A stretch of 35,718 nt of DNA, taken from positions 1-35,718 of the forward strand of contig JAAZYG010000016.1 in NCBI GenBank assembly GCA_014239775.1, given 5' to 3'. The first letter of the stretch is position 1, and every line of letters starts with the position of its first letter. Origin of the DNA: Candidatus Uhrbacteria bacterium (GTDB lineage Bacteria; Patescibacteriota; Patescibacteriia; UBA9934; GWF2-40-263). Positions 1-34,960 of this stretch are shown here, piece after piece. The notes below the pieces were generated by a model. The model ran no database searches. It had not been told where the DNA came from and was given only the letters and a program-made list of their open reading frames with translations. Position numbers and translations under genes: made by a program.

Positions 1-3000
1 GGATTTGCATTACTTATAGACTCAGATGAGACAACTGAAACAAATGACATAATGATGATTCAGACTAATTTTGGTGTTGCAGATAATAATGTATTCAAAA
101 TTGAAGCAGATGGTGAAGTATTCTCAGATGTTGGTTTCTCAGTAGGAGTTGCTTCAACTCATTACAGAGATGGTTATATAGAAAATACTGCGGGTGATCT
201 TGATTTAAGAATGTCTACAGGTTTACTTACTTTTAATCAAGATACAACTATTGGTGATGATACTAAATCTGTAACAATAGATTCGTCTAATTGGGATATT
301 TCATCAGCCGGTGTTCTTACAGGATTTACATTTGATGGAAATGCAGTAGGAAATACCATTTCTGGTATTGACGCAAACGATATTGCAGACGATGCTCTTA
401 ATTATTCAAAGTTTGCAGACGCAATGACACTCGATGCAGATACTAGTATTTCTGCAGGTGCATATAATTATACAATTAATCTAGATTCTACAGGTACCTT
501 TATGGTGCAGGATGCGGGCGTACCTGCTTTAACAGTAAGCAATGATGGAGATACCGGAATTACTGGTGGCTTGTTGGTTGGAAAGACATTAGGTGTAACA
601 CCAACAACTGAGAATACTGGAATTGCTATAACTGGAACAAACGTTCACACATCAAATTTATTATCACTATATCCAACAGGTCAAACAACAGGTCACGGGA
701 TTTATCTTGATGGCGGAACCACAAGAACATCTGGTTATCTCTTGGCGATTAATGACGCATCAAATGCTGCAACATCACCAGCAGTAGGTATAAATGTAAC
801 AGGTACGACTTCTCAGAATGAGATAGAAATAACATATGCAGGAGGTCCTGCTACAGGAAATGCAATTTCAATTAACATGGGAACAAATACTCAAGGTCAT
901 GGTCTTGAGATATTACGTAACAACTCTCAAGTAAGTGAGATATATATAGATGCAACATCATCACTGACTGGCTATGCGAGCAGGATGCTTAATTTAGTAG
1001 CATCTGATGATGATGAGGCTGATGAGATTAAGGGGGATTATATAAATTTATTCATTGAAAATGATTCAACTGCAACAGATACTGCATACGGTCAACATAT
1101 AAACATAAACCAGACAGACACAAGTGGTGCTGGTTATGGCTTATATGTTACAAAAGGCCCTTCTCAGGCAAATGGTGATGCAGACATGACGGCAGCAATT
1201 TTAATCGATAATTTAGATACAGATTCAGATGGTGCTGGGAATGACCAGGCATCTGATATATTAACTGGTATTAAATTTCAACAGACAGGAACTGGTCGTA
1301 TTGAAACAGGAATAGATTTATCTGAAATGGGTTCTCCGGGTGGATATACAGCAATAAAACTAGGAAATAATTTTATAAAATCAACAGATTTTGAGTGGTA
1401 TGACGATGGGCTTAGTACTTGGAGGATGAGAGATTCCAGTGACAATGATACTTTAATAGAAATGATAGATACGGATGCTTTTGGTGGTATAACTTGCCCA
1501 TCATCAAATTGTGCGGGGTTTACTGTCCTTGGTCAGGCAAGTGTGGGTGATTATGGTGTGGGAAATATAGATCCAAACGTGACTTTAATGGCTGGTCGAA
1601 ATTTCACAGCGAGTGCAAATTCAGAAGCATCACAGTTATACATACCTCAACAAACCATAACAAAGGCTAGTGCAGGTACTCATGGAACAATTTCACAACT
1701 GGGAATTGATCAACTAACAATAGCAAATGCAGCTGGTAATGTAACCAACGCTGCTTCACTTTATATAGAAGACGCACCATTAGTTCCTGGTGGTGCAACA
1801 AACGGCCCTTTCTCAATATTTGTTAATGCAGGAGAGAGTAGGTTTGATGATTCAATTCTTATTTTACAGGACACTAATAACAAAACAGCATTAAATATTG
1901 TGTCATCTGCAGAAGACACATCTAATGGTTTATTGAGTCTCTCATACAATGCAACTACAGGAGCGCAAACAGGGAATATAACAGGATTACAAATTGATCA
2001 AGTAATGAATTTAACAGGCGTAAGCGGTAAGCATATTACAGGATCAAAAATTTATACTAACGATTTAATAGCATCAGGTGCAACCAATACAACATACATG
2101 GGCTATTCAGTTAATGGTGACTCAGGATCATTGGATACAACTGACGCAAGTGCTACAACAATAAATTGGCGGGGTCTAGATATAGAAATGCCAGCAATTG
2201 ATACAGGTCATGCAGATGATATAGTTTCATCTTACGGAGTATCAATTAATGGAGGTGCTGTGACAGATGGCTTTGGAATGGAAGACCAGGTTGGATTAAT
2301 GATTTCAGATGTAGCGGTAGATATTGCATCAGCTCCAGGACAAGATTTAAAATTAGAGGCCGGTAAGGGTGTTGGTTCATTTGGTGGAGGTTTAGATTTT
2401 CATGCAGGCATAGGTGATTTTGATAAAGATGGGGGAGAGACTTATATAGATTCAGGTATAGGAGGAGACTCTAGTGGTGGTGCACAAGCAGGTGATGGTG
2501 GAGATTTTTTCTTAGTTACAGGTGGTGGTGGTAATGGTACTGGTAATCAGCATGCAGGTAATGGTGGTTTATTTAACCTAACTACAGGCAATGGTGGAAC
2601 CGCGGCAGGTCCTGGTAGTTCCGGTGATGGTGGAGAACTTAATATAGCATCAGGTGCAGGTGGTGCAGGTAATTCAAATAACTTACAAGCATCAGGTGTA
2701 GGTGGTGCACTTTCGCTTACTGCTGGTGCAGGTGGAGCCGCCAGTAATGGTGGAGTGAATCCAGCAGGTGCAGGTGGATCATTGAATCTATATGCTGGAG
2801 ATGGAGGACACAATGGTTTGGGTGGAGGTGCTGCAGGAGGAGGAGGAAATATTTCAATTACCGCAGGTTCAGCTAGTCAGCATGGTATAGGTGCAAATGG
2901 AGCAGATGGAGGAAATATCTCAATTACATCAGGTGCAGCTACATTGTCAGCTAATAATGTAAACGGTGGTGATGTTACTATTACAACAAGCAATGGGTCT

Positions 3001-6000
3001 AATATGGGCGTATCAAATGGTGGTAATTTAATTTTAGATACGGGGGTAGGTTCAGCTGGTGGTACTGCTGGAGACATTGTGTTGATTACAGGTACAAGTA
3101 CAGCTCCAGTATCTACATTTGGTGGTGATATTCATATTGCTTCAGCCGGCGATCTAAATATGGGTGCTGGTGATGGAAGAAATATTAAATTAGGTGATGT
3201 TGTTGGATCACAAACTATAGATATAGGTGGTGTTGGTGCAGCTTCTAACACTACAATTAATATAGCAACTGAAGCTGGATTATCTGACACAATTACAATT
3301 GGAAACAACAATGCAGCAACATTGCTTTCACTAGTAGGTGGAGACGACTGGTCAATTACAAATACTGGAACAGCAAATTTCGGTGGAGGTTTAGTTGTAA
3401 ATAGCATAACTTCTTCTCAATCAACCGGTTTGGCACTTAAAGGTGCTGATAGTGCGGGTTCAACTGGTCAGTCAATTACATTAGATGGTGGTACTGGAGC
3501 TGCGAACAATGATGGTGGAAGAATAGCGATTTCAGGTGGTACAAGCGGAGTAGGAGGAGCAGGAGGGGATGTGTACATAGGCGGTGGAAAAGATGTAGGT
3601 GGTACAGGTAATGGTGGGATTGTGATTCATAATATTGACACATCTCCAGCTGCCGTAAAAGATAGAATAATAATTCAACCAGAAGAGAATCTGCTTGTGA
3701 ATTTAGATCCTGGATCTGGAATGCAGGTTAATTCAACAAATAATTCACCTACTATAGACATGGTGAACATATCAAATATAGGCGATGCTGTTGTGTCACC
3801 AGGTGTTAATGCTTTGGAAATTCAATTTGATGCAAAACATACAGATACAGCCGCAATGCGTATTCATTCAAATTCAACTGAATTTAATGGTGGGGATAAT
3901 TATAGGGGGCTTGAATTAAAGTTTGATGGGTTTTCATCTAGTGGTAATTTAAATGAAATGCATGGTATTAACATAGGTGCAGTTTCAGAAGACGTTGATG
4001 TCCAAACAAGAACAGTTGCATTGTTAATTGAGGGTACTGGTAATATGGCAACAGACTGGGATGTTGATATAGAACTTCAAAATCAGGAGGTAATATCTAA
4101 TAGTGTGAACGGTTATATGTACTTTACTGGAAAAGGTGGAGCTGTTGACCAACAGATAGCAATGGATCTTGATGATACTAGTCCACATATATTCTCACCA
4201 ACCAGTACTCATATACAAATAAATGACAAATTAATAGTAGATCTTGGTGTTGGTACAGGTCATGCAGTATGTCATTCTGGTACTTCTAATACTGTAAATG
4301 ATGTGGAGCTTCAAGATTGTACTGCGCCTCCTGCTGCAGATTATGCTGAGCAATATCCAGTTGCAGCCGGTATCACATACGGAGATATTGTGGTTCCAGG
4401 TTCAGTAGAAGTTACAACTCAGGATGGACAGGTTATTACTAAACTTATTAAGTCTTCAGTTGTATATCAAGGTCCAGTTGCTGGAATTGTTTCAGATAAC
4501 TACGGTGACTTTACTTCAGCTGGTTACAATGTAGACGAACAGGACAATCCAATGCCGGTTGCTCTTGTTGGTCGTGTTCCAGTGAATGTTACAGACGAAA
4601 ACGGTCCAATTTCAGTTGGAGATTATCTAACAACATCTTCAACTCCAGGAAAAGCAATGAAAGCTACAGAGGCTGGTCGTGTAATCGGAATGGCACTGAA
4701 CGACTTCAGTGAAGTTTCAGGTCAGGTAATGGTTCAGGTAAATAACAGCTGGAATTTTGGTGATATATTAGCTAATGATGGTTCATCAACCTTAATTACA
4801 GACAAAACTGCAATGGCTTCAATTGGTACTGCAACTGAAGAAAACCAAACCTTCGATTCGTACGGGTTGGCGTTACGTGGTTCTGCATGGGACGGTACTC
4901 AAGCTCAGGCTGTAGAGATGATGCTTGTAAATCAAGTAACAGATACAGATAATTACAGACTATCAATTCATAATAATCAAGATGCAGAAGTTGCATATAT
5001 AACAAACGAAGGAACTCTAAATTTATCAGGCGACCTTGTGTTGTCAGGAAAGATTTATCCTTCTGATCAAGGTGTTGCACAAACTGACAAATATATTTAC
5101 TACGATGGTTCGGTTGGTGCAGGTGGTGACTTTATGAGAACAAACGCAAAGGGTTGGTCAACTGGATCATATGACTTTGCTGAGATGTTCCCTTCAACAG
5201 AAGAGTTACAGGCTGGTGATGTTGTGGTGTTTGCAGGTGAGGGTGAGAACGTAAGTAGATCAACATCAACATATGACAAGAAGCTTGCAGGTATTGTTTC
5301 AACACGACCTGGTTTCTTGGCAGGAGAAAATCTTCCAAACTCACATCCAATTGCTTTGGCTGGTCGTGTGCCAACAAAGGTAGTTATGGAAAATGGACCA
5401 ATTGAAGTGGGTGATCCACTTACAAGTTCATCAACTGCAGGATTTGCGATGAAGGCAACAGATGCAGGACCAATAATTGGTTACGCACTTGAGCCTCATA
5501 ATGGAGGAAGCGACACTAAGATTATTGTGTTCGTAAATGCAGGTTACTGGGGAGGTGAGCCAACAGACAGTGCTCCAGGTTCAGAAAATAACGCTTCAGG
5601 ATTTGCACAAGGATTTAATGTAAACTATTCAGCACTTAACATGAGCGGAAATATTTACATGACAGGTAATGAGATTTTGAGTGTAGGACGAATCGCAGCT
5701 GTTGGAGATATTTGGGAACTAAATTCTGACGGTACTATTAAGACAGCAGGATTAGTAAAGACAGTTATAGATTCATATCAAAATACAAAAGTTGAGACAG
5801 TTGCAGTTACTTCACCTGAGGTAATGATTACACTGTCTGGAACTACAGAACTTGTAGGTGATGAGGTTGAGGTACGTTTTGAAAACGTAGCTCCTGAATA
5901 TAACGATGTAATTTCAGCAATCGCACCAATACGTGTGGTTGTAACAGCAAACGGACCAGTTTCATTGTATGTAAAAGAAAAAGATCAAAACCACTTTATT

Positions 6001-6417
6001 GTAAAACGATTTGGTGGCGAAGATGTGGATGTTGAATTTGACTGGATGGTAACAGCTTATCGTAAAGGATACGAGCCAGAAGAAGAGGAAGAAGTTGTAT
6101 TAGAAAATAATGAAGAAGAATTTATTTTAGAGGTTGTTGAAGAAGTGGTTGAAGAAGTAATTGAAGAAGTTGTTGAGGAAGAACCAGTAGAAGAGGTTAT
6201 TATTCAAAATGATAATGAAGAAGTGTTGGGTCAAGAAGTTGAAGTAGAACAAGTTGAAAATTCAGATGAAGCTGTCGAGGGACAAATAAACGAAGAAGAA
6301 GTTGTTGAGGAAGAACCAGCTACTCAGGAGAGTCCTGATGAAAACCAAGTCGATTCGCCGATAGAAGATGAGGGTGGCGCACAAGCCGAGGAACCATCAG
6401 AGTCGGATGTCGAATAG
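1..6417 (+). CDS. Giant repeat-rich surface/fibre-like protein, 5' truncated by window edge (frame open from base 1: GFALLIDSDETTETNDIMMI...)
   Basis: Frame +1 is open from position 1 to TAG at 6415-6417. Thr/Ser/Asn/Gly-rich beta-type repeats, a Gly-rich block (~2340-3650), two related C-terminal modules (DYAEQYPV..., DFAEMFPS...) and a Glu/Val-rich tail. Confidence 0.9.
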   Translation, partial: GFALLIDSDETTETNDIMMIQTNFGVADNNVFKIEADGEVFSDVGFSVGVASTHYRDGYIENTAGDLDLRMSTGLLTFNQDTTIGDDTKSVTIDSSNWDISSAGVLTGFTFDGNAVGNTISGIDANDIADDALNYSKFADAMTLDADTSISAGAYNYTINLDSTGTFMVQDAGVPALTVSNDGDTGITGGLLVGKTLGVTPTTENTGIAITGTNVHTSNLLSLYPTGQTTGHGIYLDGGTTRTSGYLLAINDASNAATSPAVGINVTGTTSQNEIEITYAGGPATGNAISINMGTNTQGHGLEILRNNSQVSEIYIDATSSLTGYASRMLNLVASDDDEADEIKGDYINLFIENDSTATDTAYGQHININQTDTSGAGYGLYVTKGPSQANGDADMTAAILIDNLDTDSDGAGNDQASDILTGIKFQQTGTGRIETGIDLSEMGSPGGYTAIKLGNNFIKSTDFEWYDDGLSTWRMRDSSDNDTLIEMIDTDAFGGITCPSSNCAGFTVLGQASVGDYGVGNIDPNVTLMAGRNFTASANSEASQLYIPQQTITKASAGTHGTISQLGIDQLTIANAAGNVTNAASLYIEDAPLVPGGATNGPFSIFVNAGESRFDDSILILQDTNNKTALNIVSSAEDTSNGLLSLSYNATTGAQTGNITGLQIDQVMNLTGVSGKHITGSKIYTNDLIASGATNTTYMGYSVNGDSGSLDTTDASATTINWRGLDIEMPAIDTGHADDIVSSYGVSINGGAVTDGFGMEDQVGLMISDVAVDIASAPGQDLKLEAGKGVGSFGGGLDFHAGIGDFDKDGGETYIDSGIGGDSSGGAQAGDGGDFFLVTGGGGNGTGNQHAGNGGLFNLTTGNGGTAAGPGSSGDGGELNIASGAGGAGNSNNLQASGVGGALSLTAGAGGAASNGGVNPAGAGGSLNLYAGDGGHNGLGGGAAGGGGNISITAGSASQHGIGANGADGGNISITSGAATLSANNVNGGDVTITTSNGSNMGVSNGGNLILDTGVGSAGGTAGDIVLITGTSTAPVSTFGGDIHIASAGDLNMGAGDGRNIKLGDVVGSQTIDIGGVGAASNTTINIATEAGLSDTITIGNNNAATLLSLVGGDDWSITNTGTANFGGGLVVNSITSSQSTGLALKGADSAGSTGQSITLDGGTGAANNDGGRIAISGGTSGVGGAGGDVYIGGGKDVGGTGNGGIVIHNIDTSPAAVKDRIIIQPEENLLVNLDPGSGMQVNSTNNSPTIDMVNISNIGDAVVSPGVNALEIQFDAKHTDTAAMRIHSNSTEFNGGDNYRGLELKFDGFSSSGNLNEMHGINIGAVSEDVDVQTRTVALLIEGTGNMATDWDVDIELQNQEVISNSVNGYMYFTGKGGAVDQQIAMDLDDTSPHIFSPTSTHIQINDKLIVDLGVGTGHAVCHSGTSNTVNDVELQDCTAPPAADYAEQYPVAAGITYGDIVVPGSVEVTTQDGQVITKLIKSSVVYQGPVAGIVSDNYGDFTSAGYNVDEQDNPMPVALVGRVPVNVTDENGPISVGDYLTTSSTPGKAMKATEAGRVIGMALNDFSEVSGQVMVQVNNSWNFGDILANDGSSTLITDKTAMASIGTATEENQTFDSYGLALRGSAWDGTQAQAVEMMLVNQVTDTDNYRLSIHNNQDAEVAYITNEGTLNLSGDLVLSGKIYPSDQGVAQTDKYIYYDGSVGAGGDFMRTNAKGWSTGSYDFAEMFPSTEELQAGDVVVFAGEGENVSRSTSTYDKKLAGIVSTRPGFLAGENLPNSHPIALAGRVPTKVVMENGPIEVGDPLTSSSTAGFAMKATDAGPIIGYALEPHNGGSDTKIIVFVNAGYWGGEPTDSAPGSENNASGFAQGFNVNYSALNMSGNIYMTGNEILSVGRIAAVGDIWELNSDGTIKTAGLVKTVIDSYQNTKVETVAVTSPEVMITLSGTTELVGDEVEVRFENVAPEYNDVISAIAPIRVVVTANGPVSLYVKEKDQNHFIVKRFGGEDVDVEFDWMVTAYRKGYEPEEEEEVVLENNEEEFILEVVEEVVEEVIEEVVEEEPVEEVIIQNDNEEVLGQEVEVEQVENSDEAVEGQINEEEVVEEEPATQESPDENQVDSPIEDEGGAQAEEPSESDVE
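2380..3650 (+). repeat. Degenerate protein-level repeats of the GG-x-[LI]-x-[LI]-x-[ST]-G type (Gly-rich, predicted beta-helix-like)
   Basis: Repeated translations such as GGLFNLTTGNGG, GGELNIASGAGG, GGALSLTAGAGG, GGSLNLYAGDGG, GGNISITAGSA, GGNISITSGAA, GGDVTITTSNG, GGNLILDTGVG. Confidence 0.75.
4339..5557 (+). repeat. Two diverged copies of one C-terminal module (approx. 4339-4755 and 5167-5557)
   Basis: DYAEQYPV..GDIVV..VAGIVSD..PVALVGRVPVNVTDENGPISVGDYLTTSSTPGKAMKATEAGRVIGMAL versus DFAEMFPS..GDVVV..LAGIVSTRPG..PIALAGRVPTKVVMENGPIEVGDPLTSSSTAGFAMKATDAGPIIGYAL. Confidence 0.8.
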
Positions 6418-16811: not shown

Positions 16812-19277
16812 TTAACTATTTAGCCATTCATCTTCTTCTTCTTCTTCTTCTTCTTCTTCTTCTTCTTCTTCACCTTCCTCCTCCTCATAATCTACACCTC
16901 CTTCTTCAGTATTTTCATCTTCGTCTGTATATTCATTAGCATCCTCTTCGTCTTCGCTGTCTTGTTCGTATTCGACATCATCCTCATTATCGTCAGCATT
17001 ATATTCATCATCTTCTTCATTTTCAAACCTGTCTTCATTTTCGTAAGCCTCATCATAATCATCTTGTGCAGTAGGCATTCCCTCTGTGTGACTACCTCCT
17101 GGTGGCCAATTTTCAATTAATATATCTCTTGCCTTTGATCCTTGTTGTTCACCAATAACTCCTGCATCCTGCATAGAGTCCATGATGCGTGCTGCACGTG
17201 AGTAACCAATTCGTAATCGTCTTTGTAGAAAAGAAGTAGATGCTTTGCCGGCTTGTATGACAATTTGAACAGATTCATCAAATAGATCATCTCTATCTTC
17301 ATCGTCAAAAACAGTTCCAGCCTTTGTTATTTCCGTAACCGCCATATTATAATCAGGTTCACCTTTTTTCTGTAAATGTGCAACAACAGCCTCAACTTCT
17401 TCTGACGATAAGAATGCTCCTTGTATACGTTTTGGTTTGGATACATCAGCTGACGTAAATAACATATCACCACGTCCAAGTAGTTTATCTGCACCACCAA
17501 CATCTAGGATTGTTCGTGAATCCGTTTGGGATGCTACTGCAAATGCAATTCTTCCTGGTATGTTTGCTTTAATAATTCCAGTAATAACATCCACACTTGG
17601 TCTTTGTGTCGCAAGAACCAAATGAATACCAACAGCACGTGCCATTTGAGCAATTCTTACAATAGTTGCTTCAACTTCACGACCACTTACTGTCATTAGG
17701 TCTGCAAGCTCATCAATTACAATTACAATTTTTGGCATCCTCTCTTCAACTTTTTTGTTGTAGTCAGTTATGTTTCTTGCACCGAATTTTGAAAGTAAAT
17801 CAAGTCTACGATCCATTTCTCTTACGGCCCACTTAAGTGCGTTTACCGTGTCGTCTACATTGATAATTGGAGGTACTAATAAATGTGGAATACCAGCATA
17901 GGCTGTTAGCTCAACTCGTTTTGGATCAACCAAAATAAGTTTTAACTCATCTGGACCATTTTGGTATAACCACGAAACAATCATTGAATTCAAACAAACA
18001 CTTTTACCAGAACCAGTTGCACCAGCAACTAGCATGTGCGGCATTTTATCAAGGCCGATTGTTAAAACATTACCAGAAACATCTTTTCCAAGAGGAGTGC
18101 TTAGAATAGATTCGTGTGTTTTAAAGTTTTTTGTATCCATCACATCACGTAGTGTTACTGTTGCGACTTTTGTATTAGGTACTTCTATACCTACCAATGA
18201 TTTTCCAGGAATCGGTGCTTCCATTCTTAGCGGGTGAGCAGCAAGTGCAAGAGCAAGATCATTTTGAAGTCCAAGTATTCTTGAGAGTTTCACTCCTTGA
18301 GATGGACGCAGTGTAAATTGTGCAACAGTGGGTCCTACAGAAGTCTTTCCCATTTCAACATTAATATTAAACTCCCTAAATGTTTTTTCAATAATTTCTT
18401 TGTTGCGCTCAATGTCACCTGCCTGAGCTTTGTTTGCAGATTTTTTTAACAGTTTTAAAGGAATTGAGATTTGTCTACGATTTTTTGTTGCAAGAACTCC
18501 TTCTGGTTGCAGATTTGAATCCGCCACATTTTTTCTTCTAAAAGTATTATGTGTATCTTCATCTTCATATTCACCTTCCTCCTCTTCATCCTCCTCATCC
18601 AACTCTTCATCTTCATATTCACCTTCCTCCTCTTCATCCTCCTCATCCAACTCTTCATCTTCAAGGTCTTCAAGATCTCCATCGTAGTCTTCATCATCAT
18701 TTTTACTTTTGTGAAGAAGCTCTCCAAGCCAGCCGGTGATATGTTGGTGTAGTCCAACTATATTCTTCAAGGAAGTATTGAATATAAGCATTATTGAAAT
18801 AAATAAAAGTGCTATTACAATAACCAGTGCACCTAAATATCCAACAAGGCTTGGTAAAATTTTTGCCAAAACTTCTCCTAAATATCCTCCCGCCAAAGTC
18901 AGGTCCTCTGTAAAAGGTATTTCCCTGTGAATTAAGAGTAAGTTCAAGGTAGAGTTAAACGATAGAAAGAAAAATAAAAAACCCAGATAATTCCATGTTG
19001 ATAATTCACCTCGATCTGGATACAGCATTGTTGCACCTATTATAATAAGTACAATTGGAACAAAGAATCTATCAAAACCAAAAAATTGAGAAAGTACTGT
19101 GTTTAAAAATACACCCAGGCTTCCAGCAATCTGGAAAAACGACAGGAACATTATTGCTGCAAGAGCAAAAATGAACACGACTGAGATGCCGCGTTTTGCT
19201 TCTGGATTAAGCTCAAATCCAAATATAGCGTTATTATATTTGCGCCTGCTTTTGCGGCGCTTTTTTTTTCTAGCCAT
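16812..19277 (-). CDS. ftsK: DNA translocase FtsK/SpoIIIE with acidic linker and acidic C-terminal tail
   Basis: Walker A VAGATGSGKSVCLNSMI; KLILVDPKRVELTAYAGIPHLL; gamma-type winged helix TSFLQRRLRIGYSRAARIMDSMQDAGVIGEQQGSKAR; N-terminal TM segments. Confidence 0.95.
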   Translation of the reverse strand: MARKKKRRKSRRKYNNAIFGFELNPEAKRGISVVFIFALAAIMFLSFFQIAGSLGVFLNTVLSQFFGFDRFFVPIVLIIIGATMLYPDRGELSTWNYLGFLFFFLSFNSTLNLLLIHREIPFTEDLTLAGGYLGEVLAKILPSLVGYLGALVIVIALLFISIMLIFNTSLKNIVGLHQHITGWLGELLHKSKNDDEDYDGDLEDLEDEELDEEDEEEEGEYEDEELDEEDEEEEGEYEDEDTHNTFRRKNVADSNLQPEGVLATKNRRQISIPLKLLKKSANKAQAGDIERNKEIIEKTFREFNINVEMGKTSVGPTVAQFTLRPSQGVKLSRILGLQNDLALALAAHPLRMEAPIPGKSLVGIEVPNTKVATVTLRDVMDTKNFKTHESILSTPLGKDVSGNVLTIGLDKMPHMLVAGATGSGKSVCLNSMIVSWLYQNGPDELKLILVDPKRVELTAYAGIPHLLVPPIINVDDTVNALKWAVREMDRRLDLLSKFGARNITDYNKKVEERMPKIVIVIDELADLMTVSGREVEATIVRIAQMARAVGIHLVLATQRPSVDVITGIIKANIPGRIAFAVASQTDSRTILDVGGADKLLGRGDMLFTSADVSKPKRIQGAFLSSEEVEAVVAHLQKKGEPDYNMAVTEITKAGTVFDDEDRDDLFDESVQIVIQAGKASTSFLQRRLRIGYSRAARIMDSMQDAGVIGEQQGSKARDILIENWPPGGSHTEGMPTAQDDYDEAYENEDRFENEEDDEYNADDNEDDVEYEQDSEDEEDANEYTDEDENTEEGGVDYEEEEGEEEEEEEEEEEEEDEWLNS
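16831..16871. repeat. Trinucleotide (CTT/AAG) microsatellite encoding a poly-Glu tract in FtsK
   Basis: ~41 nt of uninterrupted TCT/TTC/CTT repeat. Confidence 0.9.
18557..18663. repeat. 48-bp tandem repeat, ~2.2 copies, in the FtsK acidic linker
   Basis: cttcatcttcatattcaccttcctcctcttcatcctcctcatccaact at 18557-18604 and 18605-18652, identical, then partial copy cttcatcttca. Confidence 0.92.
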
Positions 19278-19349
19278 GGCGGTATTTTAGCATAAAGTTG
19301 CTGTCAGTGGATAATGTTTTGTGTAAATCTCACTTTTTATCAATATCCA

Positions 19350-19378
19350 TTGACAAAACGCTATTTTTTTGTTACATT
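19350..19378 (+). promoter_or_regulatory. Strong sigma70-type promoter
   Basis: TTGACA-N17-TACATT. Confidence 0.65.
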
Positions 19379-19455
19379 CTGTAGTTGAAAAAAGTATAAA
19401 ACATCAGTTTTAATGCTTGAATATCCAACAAACAATATTTTACTGGAGTTTAGAA

Positions 19456-19662
19456 GTGTCAAAGAAAAAAAAAGGTAGGCGATCAAAGCCTGTTGTGATG
19501 AAAAAGCCAAGCGATATGATTATTCGAATCAAAACGTCTGACATAAAAGTTAGATGTAAAATCGCAATTCCTTGCGTCAAAAGATTTCATACAAGAAGTC
19601 ATGATGTAATGAAGGGGCGTAGGCGAAATCCAAAACATGTTAACAAGTATGATCAATACTAA
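19456..19662 (+). CDS. Small highly basic orphan protein, 68 aa (MSKKKKGRRSKPVVMKKPSDMIIRIKTSDIKVRCKIAIPCVKRFHTRSHDVMKGRRRNPKHVNKYDQY)
   Basis: GTG start with TGGAG SD 7 nt upstream; downstream of a good promoter; hairpin at 19692-19717. Confidence 0.6.
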   Translation: MSKKKKGRRSKPVVMKKPSDMIIRIKTSDIKVRCKIAIPCVKRFHTRSHDVMKGRRRNPKHVNKYDQY

Positions 19663-19673
19663 AGGAGGAATGC

Positions 19674-19739
19674 GTGATTGTCTTAATTCTTAGCCGTGGA
19701 AGCTTAAGTCTACGGCTTCCTATTTTAGATCATGAATGA
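19674..19739 (+). CDS. Possible 21-aa mini-ORF/leader peptide MIVLILSRGSLSLRLPILDHE
   Basis: AGGAGG SD 5 nt before GTG; same AAGGAGGAAT-(G)CGTG start context as the 30336 gene; overlaps a terminator-like hairpin. Confidence 0.3.
   Translation: MIVLILSRGSLSLRLPILDHE
19692..19717 (+). terminator. Terminator-like hairpin
   Basis: AGCCGTGGA-AGCTTAAG-TCTACGGCT (one G-U), followed by TCCTATTTTAG. Confidence 0.5.
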
Positions 19740-19760
19740 ATCGTGTTTTAAAATCGGAAA

Positions 19761-19980
19761 AATAAAACTCATAATTGGAGGGCGAGAATAAGGAGGCAAT
19801 AAATTCTCAGTTTCTTGTATTCTGAGAATCGTTATAAAGTTTTATAACATTGTCGGTTGTGTGTTCGATATAAACAAGGCTTAGGCTTTCTTTGTACCTA
19901 TTACATACAACCAATCTGTACACACCTTTATTTATAAGGTCACTGAACAGCTTTCTTGACCTCCAATTATGAGTTTTGTT
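19761..19980 (+). ncRNA. Candidate structured RNA with an 18-bp perfect closing stem (strand inferred)
   Basis: AAAACTCATAATTGGAGG (19764-19781) / CCTCCAATTATGAGTTTT (19960-19977), enclosing further hairpins at 19803-19829, 19831-19848, 19855-19912 and 19924-19940. Confidence 0.45.
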
Positions 19981-20120
19981 CTCAAATTAGACAAAACATA
20001 AGTGAGTAAGTATTATTCAAAACTTCAAGATCTGTCTTCCATAGTATTTTGATGAATATTGTGGTGGACTGATCTGGTCTTTTTGGTTCATTAAAAAGCA
20101 AAATTTTAGGAGGTGCAACA

Positions 20121-21737
20121 TTGGAACAAATAAGTTTATCAGCGAACATTGAATGTAGTCGCTGCGGAGAACATTATGAACTAGGCGATATTACTCGTCA
20201 AACCGGAAGTAATCTTCCGTGGCTTGTTGTCAAAAAAGGTTTTAAGAATATTGATGAGGTTCTAAAAACCGTCTTATGTCAGGTGTGTAATGGACACAAT
20301 GCTGGCCTATCGGTTGAAGACGCTTTGAAGATTCTTGGTGTGCAGATCACAGCTCCTGTGATTTCATCTCATCGACCAGTGTCAATTGGGTGCTCATCCA
20401 ATGTTTTTACTGGAACACATCGTCCTGTATTGTCGAGTGATTATTCACAAACAGTTACAGGATCAAATTCATGTTTTGAGAGCGATGTGGTTTTTGTTGG
20501 AGCAATGAGGCCGAAAAGCAAGTCGGGTAAACAGAATAGTTCTGGTCAAAATTTTGGCCAGCAAAAAATTCAACTACCAAAGAAACAGAGTGCAGATAGA
20601 GAAGTTTGTACTAAAGTAAGTATTTATGACTCATTGAAAGCTCAACTGGACAAGGCTGTTGAAACAGGAAGAGATTATTCTGGTTTGGTGAATATTGCTT
20701 GTAGGGTCGGTATTGATCACGAACTGGTCAGAGATTGTTTGGCTAAAGAGACTCGTTCTAATCGTGCACGTTTTGCAGCACTTTCAGGGTCATTTAAGCG
20801 AAAGCTAAAATACCTTCGTGTGGTTTCTGAAAAACAAGAGTGCACTGATTTAGTAGATGAGCTGTACGACATTCTTGCAAGGGCGAATTCAAGCGATCCA
20901 AAAAAGCGTTCAAAGAATAAACTTCTTGGTTTTTTTGGAACAAGCCATGTTGAGCTTGGTAATTTTGCGACGGTGTACTATTTAACCAAGACCATTGTTC
21001 CGTCAGATAACGGTGCTCAGTGTGTTGATAGGGTTTTGTTTAGGCGTATAGGTTTACCACAAGAGACTAAGATTAGTATCGAGTTTCCTGGTGTCAGTGC
21101 TAGACCAAGTCGCTTGTACTATCATGGAAAAACAAATGTGCGGGTTGTGAAGTTTGGTGTGAGTTTATGCTCCAAACAAAGCAAGTTGGCCTCAGATGTT
21201 TTGTGTGATGGTTACAGTGATGTAAAAATCGTGTATCCAGATGGTGAAATATATGGAAAGAATCCATGTGTCGAACTTCCTGACAACAGGTACAGGTTTA
21301 CTCAGTTGACTAACCGTCAACAGCTCTCACAAGATTCATGGGAGGTCTCAGAGGATGTGTACATGGGAGAGGGTATGAAACTTATAATGTCTCAAAAAGA
21401 CAATAAGTGGATTTATACTCCTGTGACAAAATGCTCTAAACGCACATCTACAAAAACTTTCATTGGAAAGTTTAATGATGGTTATGTGAATACTGATAGC
21501 ACACCAATGCTCTTTATGGATATTGAAGAGCCATTGATGATTTTGCAGATTGATAATTTTACTATCTCGTCTGTTCTCATGAGAAATGGAAGCACTCGTG
21601 TGTTTGAGAGTGTTCATGATGCTGATGCATTTAATAAAGGGATTATAATTATTCCTGATGAAGAAGCATTGGTGTCTTGTGATGAGGTTGTTGTTCAGTC
21701 TATTCACACAGAACAGATTCAACAAGTTCAACCTTAA
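20121..21737 (+). CDS. Orphan 538-aa protein with N-terminal Cys4 zinc-ribbon-like motif; function unknown
   Basis: TTG start with AGGAGG SD 7 nt upstream; CSRCG...CQVCNG; possible HTH (YSGLVNIACRVGIDHELVRDCLAKETRSNRARF); long uninterrupted ORF followed by a terminator. Confidence 0.8.
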   Translation: MEQISLSANIECSRCGEHYELGDITRQTGSNLPWLVVKKGFKNIDEVLKTVLCQVCNGHNAGLSVEDALKILGVQITAPVISSHRPVSIGCSSNVFTGTHRPVLSSDYSQTVTGSNSCFESDVVFVGAMRPKSKSGKQNSSGQNFGQQKIQLPKKQSADREVCTKVSIYDSLKAQLDKAVETGRDYSGLVNIACRVGIDHELVRDCLAKETRSNRARFAALSGSFKRKLKYLRVVSEKQECTDLVDELYDILARANSSDPKKRSKNKLLGFFGTSHVELGNFATVYYLTKTIVPSDNGAQCVDRVLFRRIGLPQETKISIEFPGVSARPSRLYYHGKTNVRVVKFGVSLCSKQSKLASDVLCDGYSDVKIVYPDGEIYGKNPCVELPDNRYRFTQLTNRQQLSQDSWEVSEDVYMGEGMKLIMSQKDNKWIYTPVTKCSKRTSTKTFIGKFNDGYVNTDSTPMLFMDIEEPLMILQIDNFTISSVLMRNGSTRVFESVHDADAFNKGIIIIPDEEALVSCDEVVVQSIHTEQIQQVQP

Positions 21738-21744
21738 CAAACTA

Positions 21745-21790
21745 GGTTCAGATATATAGCCTTTATATGCATATATCTGAACCATTTTTA
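21745..21790 (+). terminator. Rho-independent terminator
   Basis: GGTTCAGATATAT-AGCCTTTATATGC-ATATATCTGAACC, perfect 13-bp stem, then ATTTTTA. Confidence 0.8.
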
Positions 21791-21844
21791 TCAGTACATA
21801 ATCCTGTATTGTGTATCGATTAGAATATGATAAGATCAAACAAG

Positions 21845-22005
21845 ATGACCTTTTATAGGCTGTAATGTGTATTAATAACACTCCAAAGAAAAGTTGCGAG
21901 CATAGCTGCATTTATGTAGCGAAATCTCTCTCCTCAATGTTCAAATGTTTTTCTTCGGTTACTTTATGTAAGTTGTTTTTCTCATTACAGCCTTTAAATG
22001 GTCAT
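21845..22005. repeat. Imperfect inverted repeat (21/23) enclosing ~115 nt
   Basis: ATGACCTTTTATAGGCTGTAATG (21845-21867) versus CATTACAGCCTTTAAATGGTCAT (21983-22005). Confidence 0.75.
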
Positions 22006-22136
22006 TTTTTTGTGGATAAGACATTTTTACGATTAAAGAATTAATTGATCTACTGTAGAAAATATCTGAATTTTTACTTAATTTAGCAAAAAAATTAGAA
22101 ATTCTTGACAATATATTATAGATAACCTTCCAAGGC

Positions 22137-22165
22137 TTGACGGTGTAAAAGTATAATGTTAATAT
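22137..22165 (+). promoter_or_regulatory. Possible rpoBC promoter
   Basis: TTGACG-N17-TAATAT. Confidence 0.4.
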
Positions 22166-22185
22166 CTCGAAGTAATTGTTTGAGT

Positions 22186-22205
22186 TTTTGCTAAAATTAG
22201 CAAAA
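22186..22205. promoter_or_regulatory. Operator-like inverted repeat TTTTGCTAA-AA-TTAGCAAAA
   Basis: Perfect 9-bp arms, 2-nt spacer, directly abutting a TTGACA hexamer at 22207-22212. Confidence 0.45.
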
Positions 22206-22244
22206 CTTGACATACAAATTAAACACAATCCCTGATTTACCTCG

Positions 22245-22386
22245 TTTGCGGCTGAATGGTCTACCGGGTATCAACATCTAAAAAAATTTGAGTGGGGCTC
22301 AGGTTAACCGTCTTTAGATGACACAATTTACATCCGCAAATTAATGATTTTAGCATTCCATACCAATGGGGCGCTTTTTTATTTTT
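22245..22386 (+). promoter_or_regulatory. Structured rpoB leader with terminator-like hairpin (attenuator candidate)
   Basis: TTTGCGG/CCGCAAA (22245/22334), CATCTAAA/TTTAGATG (22275/22313), then imperfect hairpin GCATTCCAT-ACCA-ATGGGGCGC + TTTTTTATTTTT ~40 nt before rpoB. Confidence 0.5.
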
Positions 22387-22422
22387 GAGAATTTAATTTT
22401 TTAATTCTAACTTATACGCATT

Positions 22423-31914: not shown

Positions 31915-32826
31915 ATGTTCTTATTAAGTTCAAAACTTTCAAAAACAACTCAGATATTATTTGTATCTTTTTTTGTAATATGTTCAATTTTTGTGTGTGC
32001 AAAATCAGCAAGTGCAGATTCGATTGGAATGTCACCACCAAAAATTATTGATAAAATGGAACCAAATGAAAGATTTAAACATACAATCACATTAATGAGA
32101 TCCAAGAATATAGATAAATCAATTAGTCTAAATATAAGTGTTGTTGGCGAAGGCTCTGAATTGGTGGATCTGTACTCTGGAAAGGTAGTTTCTTTTTCAC
32201 CAGGAGAAGAAAAGATATTTTATACTTATGCTATAGATACAGATGGAGCAATTTTTGGTAATTTTAATCCAAAACTACATTTTATATTAGACGAACTTGT
32301 TAATTCAAATGGACTCCAAATGCATGTTGGGCTAGTACACGAAATAGTATTAGAAATTTTGCCAAAGTCAGAAAAAGAAAGGGTTGTTTATAGAGCAGGT
32401 GTCTTAGAAGAAGTGGATAATTTATTTTTAAGACATCCAAAAGTAAAAGTTGTTAAAAATAAGTCAAAAACAAATATAAATATTTCTACTGAGTTGATTA
32501 ATAAAACAAAAGTAGTGATTGCTGAGGTACCATATATATTCAATGTATATAAAGGTAGTGAATTAATATCATCTATCGAAGAAATACATAGAGTTAAAAT
32601 TCAACCAAACAAATCAGATATAATTAATGAAACATTTAAAATTAAAAATCGTTACAAAACAATTGGTAAATACAGGTTTGTGTATAAAATAGGTGATTTA
32701 ACAACTGAATTAAATTATTTTCTTATACCACCAGAATATGTATTTTTGGCATTGATGGGGTTTGCACTACCTTTTTCAATGATCCATTTAACATGTAGAC
32801 GGTATAAAAAAACTAAAAAATCCTAA
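31915..32826 (+). CDS. Secreted membrane-anchored protein, Ig-like (IGMSPP family)
   Basis: Signal peptide, IGMSPPKIIDKMEPNERFKHTITLMRSKN, C-terminal TM YVFLALMGFALPFSMIHL + basic tail. Confidence 0.65.
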   Translation: MFLLSSKLSKTTQILFVSFFVICSIFVCAKSASADSIGMSPPKIIDKMEPNERFKHTITLMRSKNIDKSISLNISVVGEGSELVDLYSGKVVSFSPGEEKIFYTYAIDTDGAIFGNFNPKLHFILDELVNSNGLQMHVGLVHEIVLEILPKSEKERVVYRAGVLEEVDNLFLRHPKVKVVKNKSKTNINISTELINKTKVVIAEVPYIFNVYKGSELISSIEEIHRVKIQPNKSDIINETFKIKNRYKTIGKYRFVYKIGDLTTELNYFLIPPEYVFLALMGFALPFSMIHLTCRRYKKTKKS

Positions 32827-33388: not shown

Positions 33389-34960
33389 ATGATTCAATAT
33401 TCAAAAATAAATAAAAATTTATTTTCACTCAGCTTATATATTTTTTTATTTTCACTATTTTTATTTTTACCAATTAAACACGTAAATGCAATAGGAGTAA
33501 GTCCACCTACTTTAACAGGTATTTCAATTCCACGAAATGGCATACAAACAAAACAAATAAGAGTTTTAAGAGGTGGGGATAACAAAGGAAACTTAAAAAT
33601 TAAAGTGGAGGCCATGGGTGAGAATGCAGAGTATATTGAGACATCCGGTGATATTATTATGATTAGTGGTAAGGATTTTGTTGATTATGAATTTACAATT
33701 AATCCAAAAAATGCTCCAAATGGAGAACATAAAGCCAGACTATCATTTATATCACAAGGTATTGTTGGAGAAGAAAAAACAAAAGGAGCATCTGTGCAAG
33801 TGTTTGGTGGTGCAGTAGCAGATATTTATTTTGAGGTGGGAGGTGTTGAGGTTATAAAATATGAAATTATAAAATTATTTGTAAAAAATACAGAGGTAAA
33901 TAAAAATACAGAACTTTCTTTTGAAGTAAACAATACTGGTAATGTAAATTGGAAACCAGAAAGAATAGATTTACAATTTACTAATATCAATGATTCTACA
34001 GAAAAAATAATACATACAATATTTAGTGATGCAATAAATATTGCAAAAGCAGGGCGTTTTACTGAATATGTATTTAATTTAGATTTACCATTTATACAAT
34101 CTGAATATGTATTAAATGCAGTTTTTTATGCAAAAGATAAAGAAAAAACAGAATTAACTTCAAATCACTTTAATGTATTTGCTCCAGATACATTAAAGCA
34201 AAAAGGAGAATTGAAGGACGTAAGTCTTAACAAAGACGTATTTTCACCAGATGAAAATATAAAAGTAAGCGGTGTATTTAAAAATACAGGAGAAATTGCT
34301 GTAAGCGGTGTTTTGGTTGTTGAGGTTTATTTAAATAATGAGTTAACAGATTTGTTGAAAAGCAGTGAACTAGATGTAAGTGTCTTAGAAGAAGTAATTT
34401 TTTCAAAAGTATTTACTTTAAAGGAAATTGGTAATTATAAAATATCTGCACATATTAAATACGGAAATAAACAAACAGTTGTATTAAATAAAGAATTTAA
34501 TGTTCAAAATAACAATAATGACAAAGTGGCTATAACAGAGATTGCATCAAAATTAAATACATATATAGGAATAGGTGTGTTAATTTCGATAATTATAATT
34601 ATTACAACAATCTTCATTTTACGTAGGCGAAAAACTGTACAATTTTCAGAACCAGAACCAGTTCAAGGTGTGCAAAATAATATGATTATTTCAGAGTTAG
34701 ATGATAACAGTGCTACTGAAAATATGACAACAGATATTAATGTTACCAATAAAGAAACAGAAATATCAGATAATACAATTGAACCAATTAAAGAAAGTGT
34801 TGAAAAATCAGATAAGGTAGAATTTATTCAAACAGAACAAAGTACTATTCATGAGTCACTGGGTAATTCAGATGAGATAAATAATTATGAATCAGACTCA
34901 GATGACGTTAATTTATTGGATCAAATTAATACAGGAAACACTAGTTTAGATGATAAATAA
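33389..34960 (+). CDS. Secreted membrane-anchored protein with Ig/COG1361-like domains (IGVSPP family)
   Basis: Signal peptide, IGVSPPTLTGISIPRNGIQTKQIRVLRGG, CARDB-like VSGVFKNTGEIAVSGVLVVEVYLNN, TM IGVLISIIIIITTIFIL, acidic cytoplasmic tail. Confidence 0.7.
   Translation: MIQYSKINKNLFSLSLYIFLFSLFLFLPIKHVNAIGVSPPTLTGISIPRNGIQTKQIRVLRGGDNKGNLKIKVEAMGENAEYIETSGDIIMISGKDFVDYEFTINPKNAPNGEHKARLSFISQGIVGEEKTKGASVQVFGGAVADIYFEVGGVEVIKYEIIKLFVKNTEVNKNTELSFEVNNTGNVNWKPERIDLQFTNINDSTEKIIHTIFSDAINIAKAGRFTEYVFNLDLPFIQSEYVLNAVFYAKDKEKTELTSNHFNVFAPDTLKQKGELKDVSLNKDVFSPDENIKVSGVFKNTGEIAVSGVLVVEVYLNNELTDLLKSSELDVSVLEEVIFSKVFTLKEIGNYKISAHIKYGNKQTVVLNKEFNVQNNNNDKVAITEIASKLNTYIGIGVLISIIIIITTIFILRRRKTVQFSEPEPVQGVQNNMIISELDDNSATENMTTDINVTNKETEISDNTIEPIKESVEKSDKVEFIQTEQSTIHESLGNSDEINNYESDSDDVNLLDQINTGNTSLDDK

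What the first reader, a model, noticed from the sequence alone, without database searches (positions are those of the whole stretch)
19300..22422. Orphan island between divergent ftsK and rpoB
About 3.1 kb between two conserved, divergently oriented operons holds a 68-aa basic protein, a mini-ORF, a long-range paired RNA, a 538-aa Zn-ribbon protein, a strong terminator, a second inverted-repeat block and a structured rpoB leader. None is a family I recognise. The arrangement (basic peptide + structured RNA + Zn-ribbon/HTH-like protein) could be a previously undescribed ribonucleoprotein or regulatory system.
Basis: partly seen in the sequence, partly recalled or inferred. Interest (0 to 1): 0.72.

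Follow-up and report, generated by a model that had tools for sequence, protein, structure and literature searches.

The report
Conserved RNA-framed orphan cassette near rpoB
In a group of tiny uncultured bacteria (Uhrbacteria), the gap next to the RNA-polymerase gene rpoB carries two previously undescribed, evolutionarily conserved folded RNAs that frame a very fast-changing orphan protein, plus a built-in transcription stop ahead of rpoB; the arrangement recurs in another bacterial family, so it is a real unit whose job is still unknown.

Summary
The window is from a Candidatus Uhrbacteria genome. Between ftsK and rpoB lie a basic 68-aa protein (B68), RNA-1 (19761-19980), a 538-aa protein (BIG), RNA-2 (21838-22011) and an rpoB leader with a terminator. 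RNA-1 and RNA-2 are strongly supported by covariation: 40/48 and 37/39 pairs show two-sided changes, with 0/500 shuffles as good. Neither matches Rfam, and no protein matched Pfam, NCBIfam, PHROGs, PADLOC or the PDB. In another family of the class (f6), the order B68 > RNA-1 > orphan > RNA-2 recurs, turned around relative to rpoB. RNA-2 has its own promoter and an exposed, nearly invariant UCUCUCUCC loop. BIG evolves very fast (27-80% identity within genera where rpoB is 89-99%). The f6 orphans compared share no detectable similarity with BIG. The rpoB leader carries a terminator hairpin in 16/16 genomes. That these are conserved RNAs is near certain. Mechanism is inferred: RNA-1 as leader/ncRNA of the orphan gene, RNA-2 as trans-acting sRNA, the leader as rpoB attenuator. 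Rivals: 6S-like RNA-2, an RNA/toxin-like pair, or conserved RNAs beside an unrelated hotspot.

The parts
19350..19378 (+). promoter-like site upstream of B68 (TTGACA-N17-TACATT)
   Evidence: (consensus match only)
19456..19662 (+). B68: 68-aa basic protein, GTG start
   Evidence: relatives by HMM in further Uhrbacteria and in genomes of family f6; no Pfam/NCBIfam/PHROGs/PADLOC family
19692..19717 (+). terminator-like hairpin after B68 (lies inside the 21-aa mini-ORF 19674-19739)
   Evidence: comparable hairpins seen in G027 and G018
19761..19980 (+). RNA-1: structured RNA; long closing stem with TGGAGG/CCTCC core, variable arm P2, conserved hairpin P3 (AAGGC-N4-GCTTT), arm with GGTCACTG, U-tract at 3' end in most relatives
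20121..21737 (+). BIG: 538-aa hypervariable orphan; zinc ribbon about 10-75, disordered 80-165, helical domain 166-290, disordered 293-363, beta domain 364-515
21745..21783 (+). terminator-like hairpin after BIG (perfect 13-bp stem, then T-run)
   Evidence: I11
21838..22011 (+). RNA-2: rod-like structured RNA with exposed AAATCTCTCTCCTC loop
22137..22165 (+). rpoB promoter-like site (TTGACG-N17-TAATAT, TG extended)
   Evidence: same element upstream of rpoB in relatives
22229..22390 (+). rpoB leader RNA (RNA-3): conserved motif CCTCGTTTGCGGCTGAATGGTCTACCGGG at 22240-22268, pairing CATCT/AGATG, terminator hairpin 22352-22375 with T-run

Best explanation
The island is a conserved gene cassette of this bacterial class in which structured RNAs frame a fast-evolving orphan protein gene: B68 > RNA-1 > orphan (BIG) > RNA-2. 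In Uhrbacteria it is followed by an rpoB 5' leader with its own terminator. Shown: RNA-1 and RNA-2 are real conserved RNAs on the + strand; RNA-2 lies behind its own conserved promoter with an exposed, nearly invariant pyrimidine loop; RNA-1 lies directly upstream of the orphan gene, ends in a U-tract in Uhrbacteria, and has a strong promoter in family f6; a terminator precedes rpoB in every leader checked. Inferred: RNA-1 is an expressed leader or free ncRNA that gates the orphan gene by premature termination and may be bound by the basic B68 and/or the zinc-ribbon protein. RNA-2 acts in trans as an sRNA whose UCUCUCUCCUC loop pairs with purine-rich GGAGG-type sequences (ribosome-binding sites, possibly the 5' strand of RNA-1). 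The leader attenuates rpoB transcription.
For: RNA-1: 17 sequences, 95.6% of cells paired, 40/48 pairs with two-sided changes, 0/500 shuffles, slid controls 41-51%. One G-U pair in 17/17 fixes the + strand; forward 158 bits against reverse 37. RNA-2: 40 sequences, 94.2% paired, 37/39 pairs compensatory. RNA-2 promoter TTGA-N18-21-TANNNT in 27/44 and, in f6, 17/22 against 1.5% of random windows; loop mean unpaired probability 0.93; CTCTCTCC in 41/45 and 15/22. RNA-1 in f6: closing stem TGGAGG/CCTCCA found 23 times in 19/34 loci, against mean 0.2 (max 2) for 29 permuted hexamers. The P3-tip hairpin is in 18/20 (window family) and 16/23 (f6), shuffles about 1. Own promoter upstream of RNA-1 in 13/23 f6 copies (sequences in 129); U-tract after RNA-1 in 75% of Uhrbacteria against 4% control. 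Whole cassette in f6 genome G661. Leader: terminator in 16/16; motif in 11 genomes, once each, at the rpoB leader, reversed-pattern control zero. No Rfam match even at permissive E.
Against: No expression data and no protein-RNA binding evidence. RNA-1 is found without BIG (G023, G012, G006) and BIG without RNA-1 (e.g. G004, G060, G031, G025, G063), so they are not strictly dependent. In Uhrbacteria no own promoter was seen directly upstream of RNA-1. The RNA-1/RNA-2 complementarity is between two invariant motifs and shows no co-variation. The second stem of the rpoB leader aligns poorly across genera, so only its first stem and terminator are well supported.
Confidence: 0.4

Rival explanations
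1. Conserved RNAs beside a hotspot: RNA-1 and RNA-2 are ordinary regulatory RNAs of this lineage, and the ftsK-rpoB gap is an insertion or rapid-turnover site whose orphan genes have nothing to do with them.
For: Gap size ranges from 0.4 to 6.9 kb and some genomes have almost nothing there; f6 orphans compared have no sequence similarity to BIG; RNA-1 without BIG in G023, G012, G006.
Against: The order B68 > RNA-1 > orphan > RNA-2 is kept in two families although the flanking genes are arranged differently; RNA-1 is placed ahead of an orphan ORF in both.
Confidence: 0.3
2. RNA-2 is a highly diverged 6S RNA that binds RNA polymerase, which would suit its place beside rpoB.
For: About 175 nt, long closing stem, internal loop at about 25 bp, terminal stem-loop, own promoter, next to rpoB in the window's family. 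No Rfam 6S hit elsewhere in this genome.
Against: No 6S match even at E up to 10. The nearly invariant part is a terminal-loop pyrimidine run, not the central bubble as expected for 6S (own knowledge). In f6 RNA-2 sits beside rodZ, not rpoB.
Confidence: 0.15
3. RNA antitoxin plus toxin pair: a structured RNA with a terminator ahead of a fast-evolving protein gene, organised like type III toxin-antitoxin loci.
For: RNA then U-tract then protein gene in Uhrbacteria; fast protein evolution; occasional loss of the protein.
Against: No tandem repeats in the RNA; no match to toxin or defence families; RNA kept when the protein is lost and protein kept when the RNA is lost; fixed chromosomal locus across the family.
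Confidence: 0.1
4. RNA-1 is not an RNA but a DNA hairpin acting as a recombination site (attC-like) that lets orphan genes be exchanged.
For: Inverted repeat next to variable ORFs, two copies in some f6 loci.
Against: Conserved G-U pair and interior hairpin; strand-specific scores; promoters upstream in f6; no tandem cassette arrays seen.
Confidence: 0.05

Closest known systems
rpoBC leader attenuation and the L10 leader in other bacteria (own knowledge)
   Same: A structured leader and an intrinsic terminator ahead of the RNA polymerase beta gene.
   Different: No rplJL directly upstream here, no Rfam L10-leader match, and a motif found only in this order among the 383 genomes of the class searched.
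6S RNA (RF00013)
   Same: Size, rod-like shape with internal loop, autonomous gene.
   Different: No covariance-model match; hallmark is a terminal-loop UCUCUCUCC run.
Type III toxin-antitoxin loci (own knowledge)
   Same: Structured RNA, terminator, then protein gene.
   Different: No repeats; protein matches no toxin family; the parts occur separately.
Small RNAs with C/U-rich loops that bind ribosome-binding sites (own knowledge)
   Same: Exposed pyrimidine loop complementary to GGAGG-type sequence (RNA-2).
   Different: Different structure and lineage; no target tested.

Membership tests
6S RNA | match to the 6S covariance model | tested here: not met
   own genome, E<=1; well-conserved RNA-2 locus of G004, E<=10
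6S RNA | binds RNA polymerase and templates product RNA | not testable with these tools
   needs biochemistry
Any of 4227 Rfam families | match at gathering or permissive threshold | tested here: not met
Type III toxin-antitoxin | tandem-repeat RNA antitoxin | tested here: not met
   no tandem repeats in 19280-22422
Type III toxin-antitoxin | toxin-family protein | tested here: not met
rpoB attenuator leader | conserved leader with intrinsic terminator just before rpoB | tested here: met
   hairpin plus T-run in 16/16; motif once per genome, at the rpoB leader
rpoB attenuator leader | regulated termination | not testable with these tools
   needs in vitro transcription or RNA-seq
TnpB/IscB-type RNA-guided nuclease | RuvC/OrfB-type protein next to guide RNA | tested here: not met
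   no such Pfam match for any of 22 BIG proteins
Integron attC site | DNA hairpin flanking gene cassettes in an array, with integrase | not tested
   no integrase search was run; RNA-level conservation and promoters argue against

The most novel reading that the evidence does not exclude
A previously undescribed RNA-protein system of this candidate-phyla class: RNA-1 and RNA-2 interact (purine strand of RNA-1 with the invariant pyrimidine loop of RNA-2) and, together with the basic B68 and a hypervariable protein, form a ribonucleoprotein or RNA-gated defence/conflict module, physically coupled in Uhrbacteria to control of RNA polymerase synthesis.
Probability: 0.2. Interest if true: 0.9.

Novelty: new variant of a known kind. 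Interest (0 to 1): 0.7.

Why it matters
I found no published non-coding RNA work on Uhrbacteria in the papers held, and Rfam has no family for these RNAs. Two RNAs with this much covariation, own promoters and a fixed place beside rpoB and ftsK are likely important for the cell. They frame a protein gene that changes beyond recognition between genera while the RNAs stay, which is the pattern of a conflict or host-interaction locus. The rpoB leader offers a testable case of RNA-based control of RNA polymerase in organisms with very small genomes.

Tried and rejected
Single-protein scan of named genomes found no relative of BIG because the protein diverges too fast; synteny and an iterated HMM were needed. 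Pfam, PHROGs, NCBIfam, PADLOC and PDB sequence searches of the proteins: nothing above cut-offs. Foldseek of the BIG model: nothing at E<=1e-3 in PDB; one BFVD hit at 4e-4 with TM 0.08, not meaningful. A separate model of the beta domain reached only pLDDT 63 and was not searched. RNA-1 P3 core read as a coding sequence (DANKAPAFFAP in several genomes): rejected because changes hit all codon positions, are compensated by pairing, and the window and others have in-frame stops. RNA-1 and RNA-2 motifs on viral contigs: none. A second RNA-1-like hit in G004 (38 bits) is within the range of reverse-strand hits and was not counted; likewise the f42 hit of RNA-2 (31 bits).

Full report
Setting. The window is contig C30 of an 872-kb genome. 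Neighbours are ordinary: recA, a rodZ-like gene and ftsK on one side, rpoB, rpoC and ruvC on the other.

Observation. RNA-1 folds far better than shuffles (z -10.2) and RNA-2 also (z -6.4). The rpoB leader does not (z -0.76); its evidence is comparative.

Synteny in the window's family. I located rpoB in 41 genomes of the family and read the upstream intervals where contigs allowed. BIG relatives found by iterated HMM occur in 22 genomes, always on the rpoB strand and ending 0.5-1.1 kb before it. Three more genomes have shorter proteins with the same N-terminal CxxC...CxxC layout, recognised by eye. B68 relatives occur in 8 other genomes of the family and lie ahead of RNA-1 or BIG in nearly all. 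RNA-1 lies directly ahead of BIG in 17 genomes (one a remnant), stands without BIG in G023, G012, G006 and probably G024, and is absent in several genomes that keep BIG. RNA-2 is the fixed element: it lies upstream of rpoB in about 45 genomes of the order, including families without BIG.

RNA evidence. On 17 RNA-1 sequences 95.6% of cells pair, 40 of 48 pairs show two-sided changes, and no shuffle reaches this; slid controls give 41-51%. On 40 RNA-2 sequences the figures are 94.2% and 37 of 39. One RNA-1 pair is G-U in 17 of 17, which sets the transcribed strand. Rfam has no match even at permissive thresholds. These alignments were fitted to the models, which leans counts upward, but plain MAFFT alignments gave the same picture (28/48 and 31/39 pairs).

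Second family. Searching the phylum and class, RNA-2 also appears in family f6 of the class. There it lies between orphan ORFs and the 3' end of rodZ. Fetching 31 further f6 intervals gave RNA-2 in 24 genomes in total, B68 in 7 (one, G661, confirmed by profile comparison), and RNA-1 recognised by its closing stem TGGAGG/CCTCCA in 19 of 34 loci, against a mean of 0.2 hits for 29 permuted hexamers. Independently of that selection, the P3-tip hairpin NNGGC-N3-5-GCTNN is present in 16 of 23 f6 elements and 18 of 20 elements of the window's family, with about 1 expected. In G661 the full order is B68, RNA-1, a 526-aa orphan, RNA-2. The f6 orphans compared show no detectable relation to BIG. Relative to rpoB the cassette is inverted in f6, so its internal order is kept while its neighbours changed.

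Transcription signals. RNA-2 is preceded by TTGA-N18-21-TANNNT in 27/44 and, in f6, 17/22 cases, against 1.5% of random windows, and its CTCTCTCC loop is predicted unpaired (mean 0.93). RNA-1 in f6 has a strong promoter just upstream (13/23 by pattern, sequences in 129). In the window's family RNA-1 instead ends in a U-tract in 75% of cases against 4% control. The rpoB leader carries a terminator hairpin of varying sequence in 16/16 genomes, and its 5' motif occurs once per genome, at the rpoB leader.

Proteins. No library recognises B68 or BIG. The BIG model has a confident zinc ribbon, a confident helical domain and a less confident beta domain separated by disorder (mean pLDDT 67, pTM 0.36), with no structural relative. 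Within genera BIG is 27-80% identical where rpoB is 89-99%, RNA-1 78-91% and RNA-2 68-96%.

Interpretation. Existence of two new RNA classes and of a conserved cassette is well supported (about 0.95). How it works is inferred. I favour RNA-1 as leader/ncRNA of the orphan gene, RNA-2 as a trans-acting sRNA reading purine-rich sites, and the leader as an rpoB attenuator (0.4 as a whole). Complementarity between RNA-1 and the RNA-2 loop (-11 to -16 kcal/mol in five genomes, in four of them at the RNA-1 strand GGAGGACGAGA or its variant) suggests they may meet, but both motifs are invariant, so there is no covariation to support it, and any ribosome-binding site would also pair.

Limits. No expression data; genome sampling was partial beyond the family; searches with strict filters can miss weak copies; some loci are cut by contig ends; family f6 is unnamed here. 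The promoter, U-tract and tip-motif tests were written after looking at the sequences, so their controls show enrichment rather than a blind prediction.

Noticed in passing
L046:6897-7213 (G018): A roughly 130-nt near-perfect hairpin (GAGACCTCTCTAAAAGTCG...CGACTTTTAGAGAGGTCTC) is inserted in the tip of the RNA-1 P3 hairpin, like a small transposon (MITE) that leaves the RNA stems intact.
   Followed up: no
window 52-6417: A 2121-aa ORF with no Pfam match at E up to 1.
   Followed up: no
window 31915-32826 and 33389-34960: Two more ORFs (303 and 523 aa) without any Pfam family between ruvC and the window end.
   Followed up: no
window 18551-18757 (ftsK, minus strand): Acidic repeat tract (EEDEEEEGEYEDEELD twice) in the FtsK linker; the C-terminus is also a long acidic run.
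   Followed up: no
L153 and other f6 loci: RNA-1 in f6 is preceded by an unusually uniform promoter TTGACA-N16-17-TGCTAAGGT, with a TG-extended, non-consensus -10.
   Followed up: partly
L167, L173, L178, L099: Two RNA-1-type elements in one f6 interval, some with a variant tip (CCGGUUUCGACUGG or CGGAUUCGUCUGG), suggesting subtypes.
   Followed up: partly
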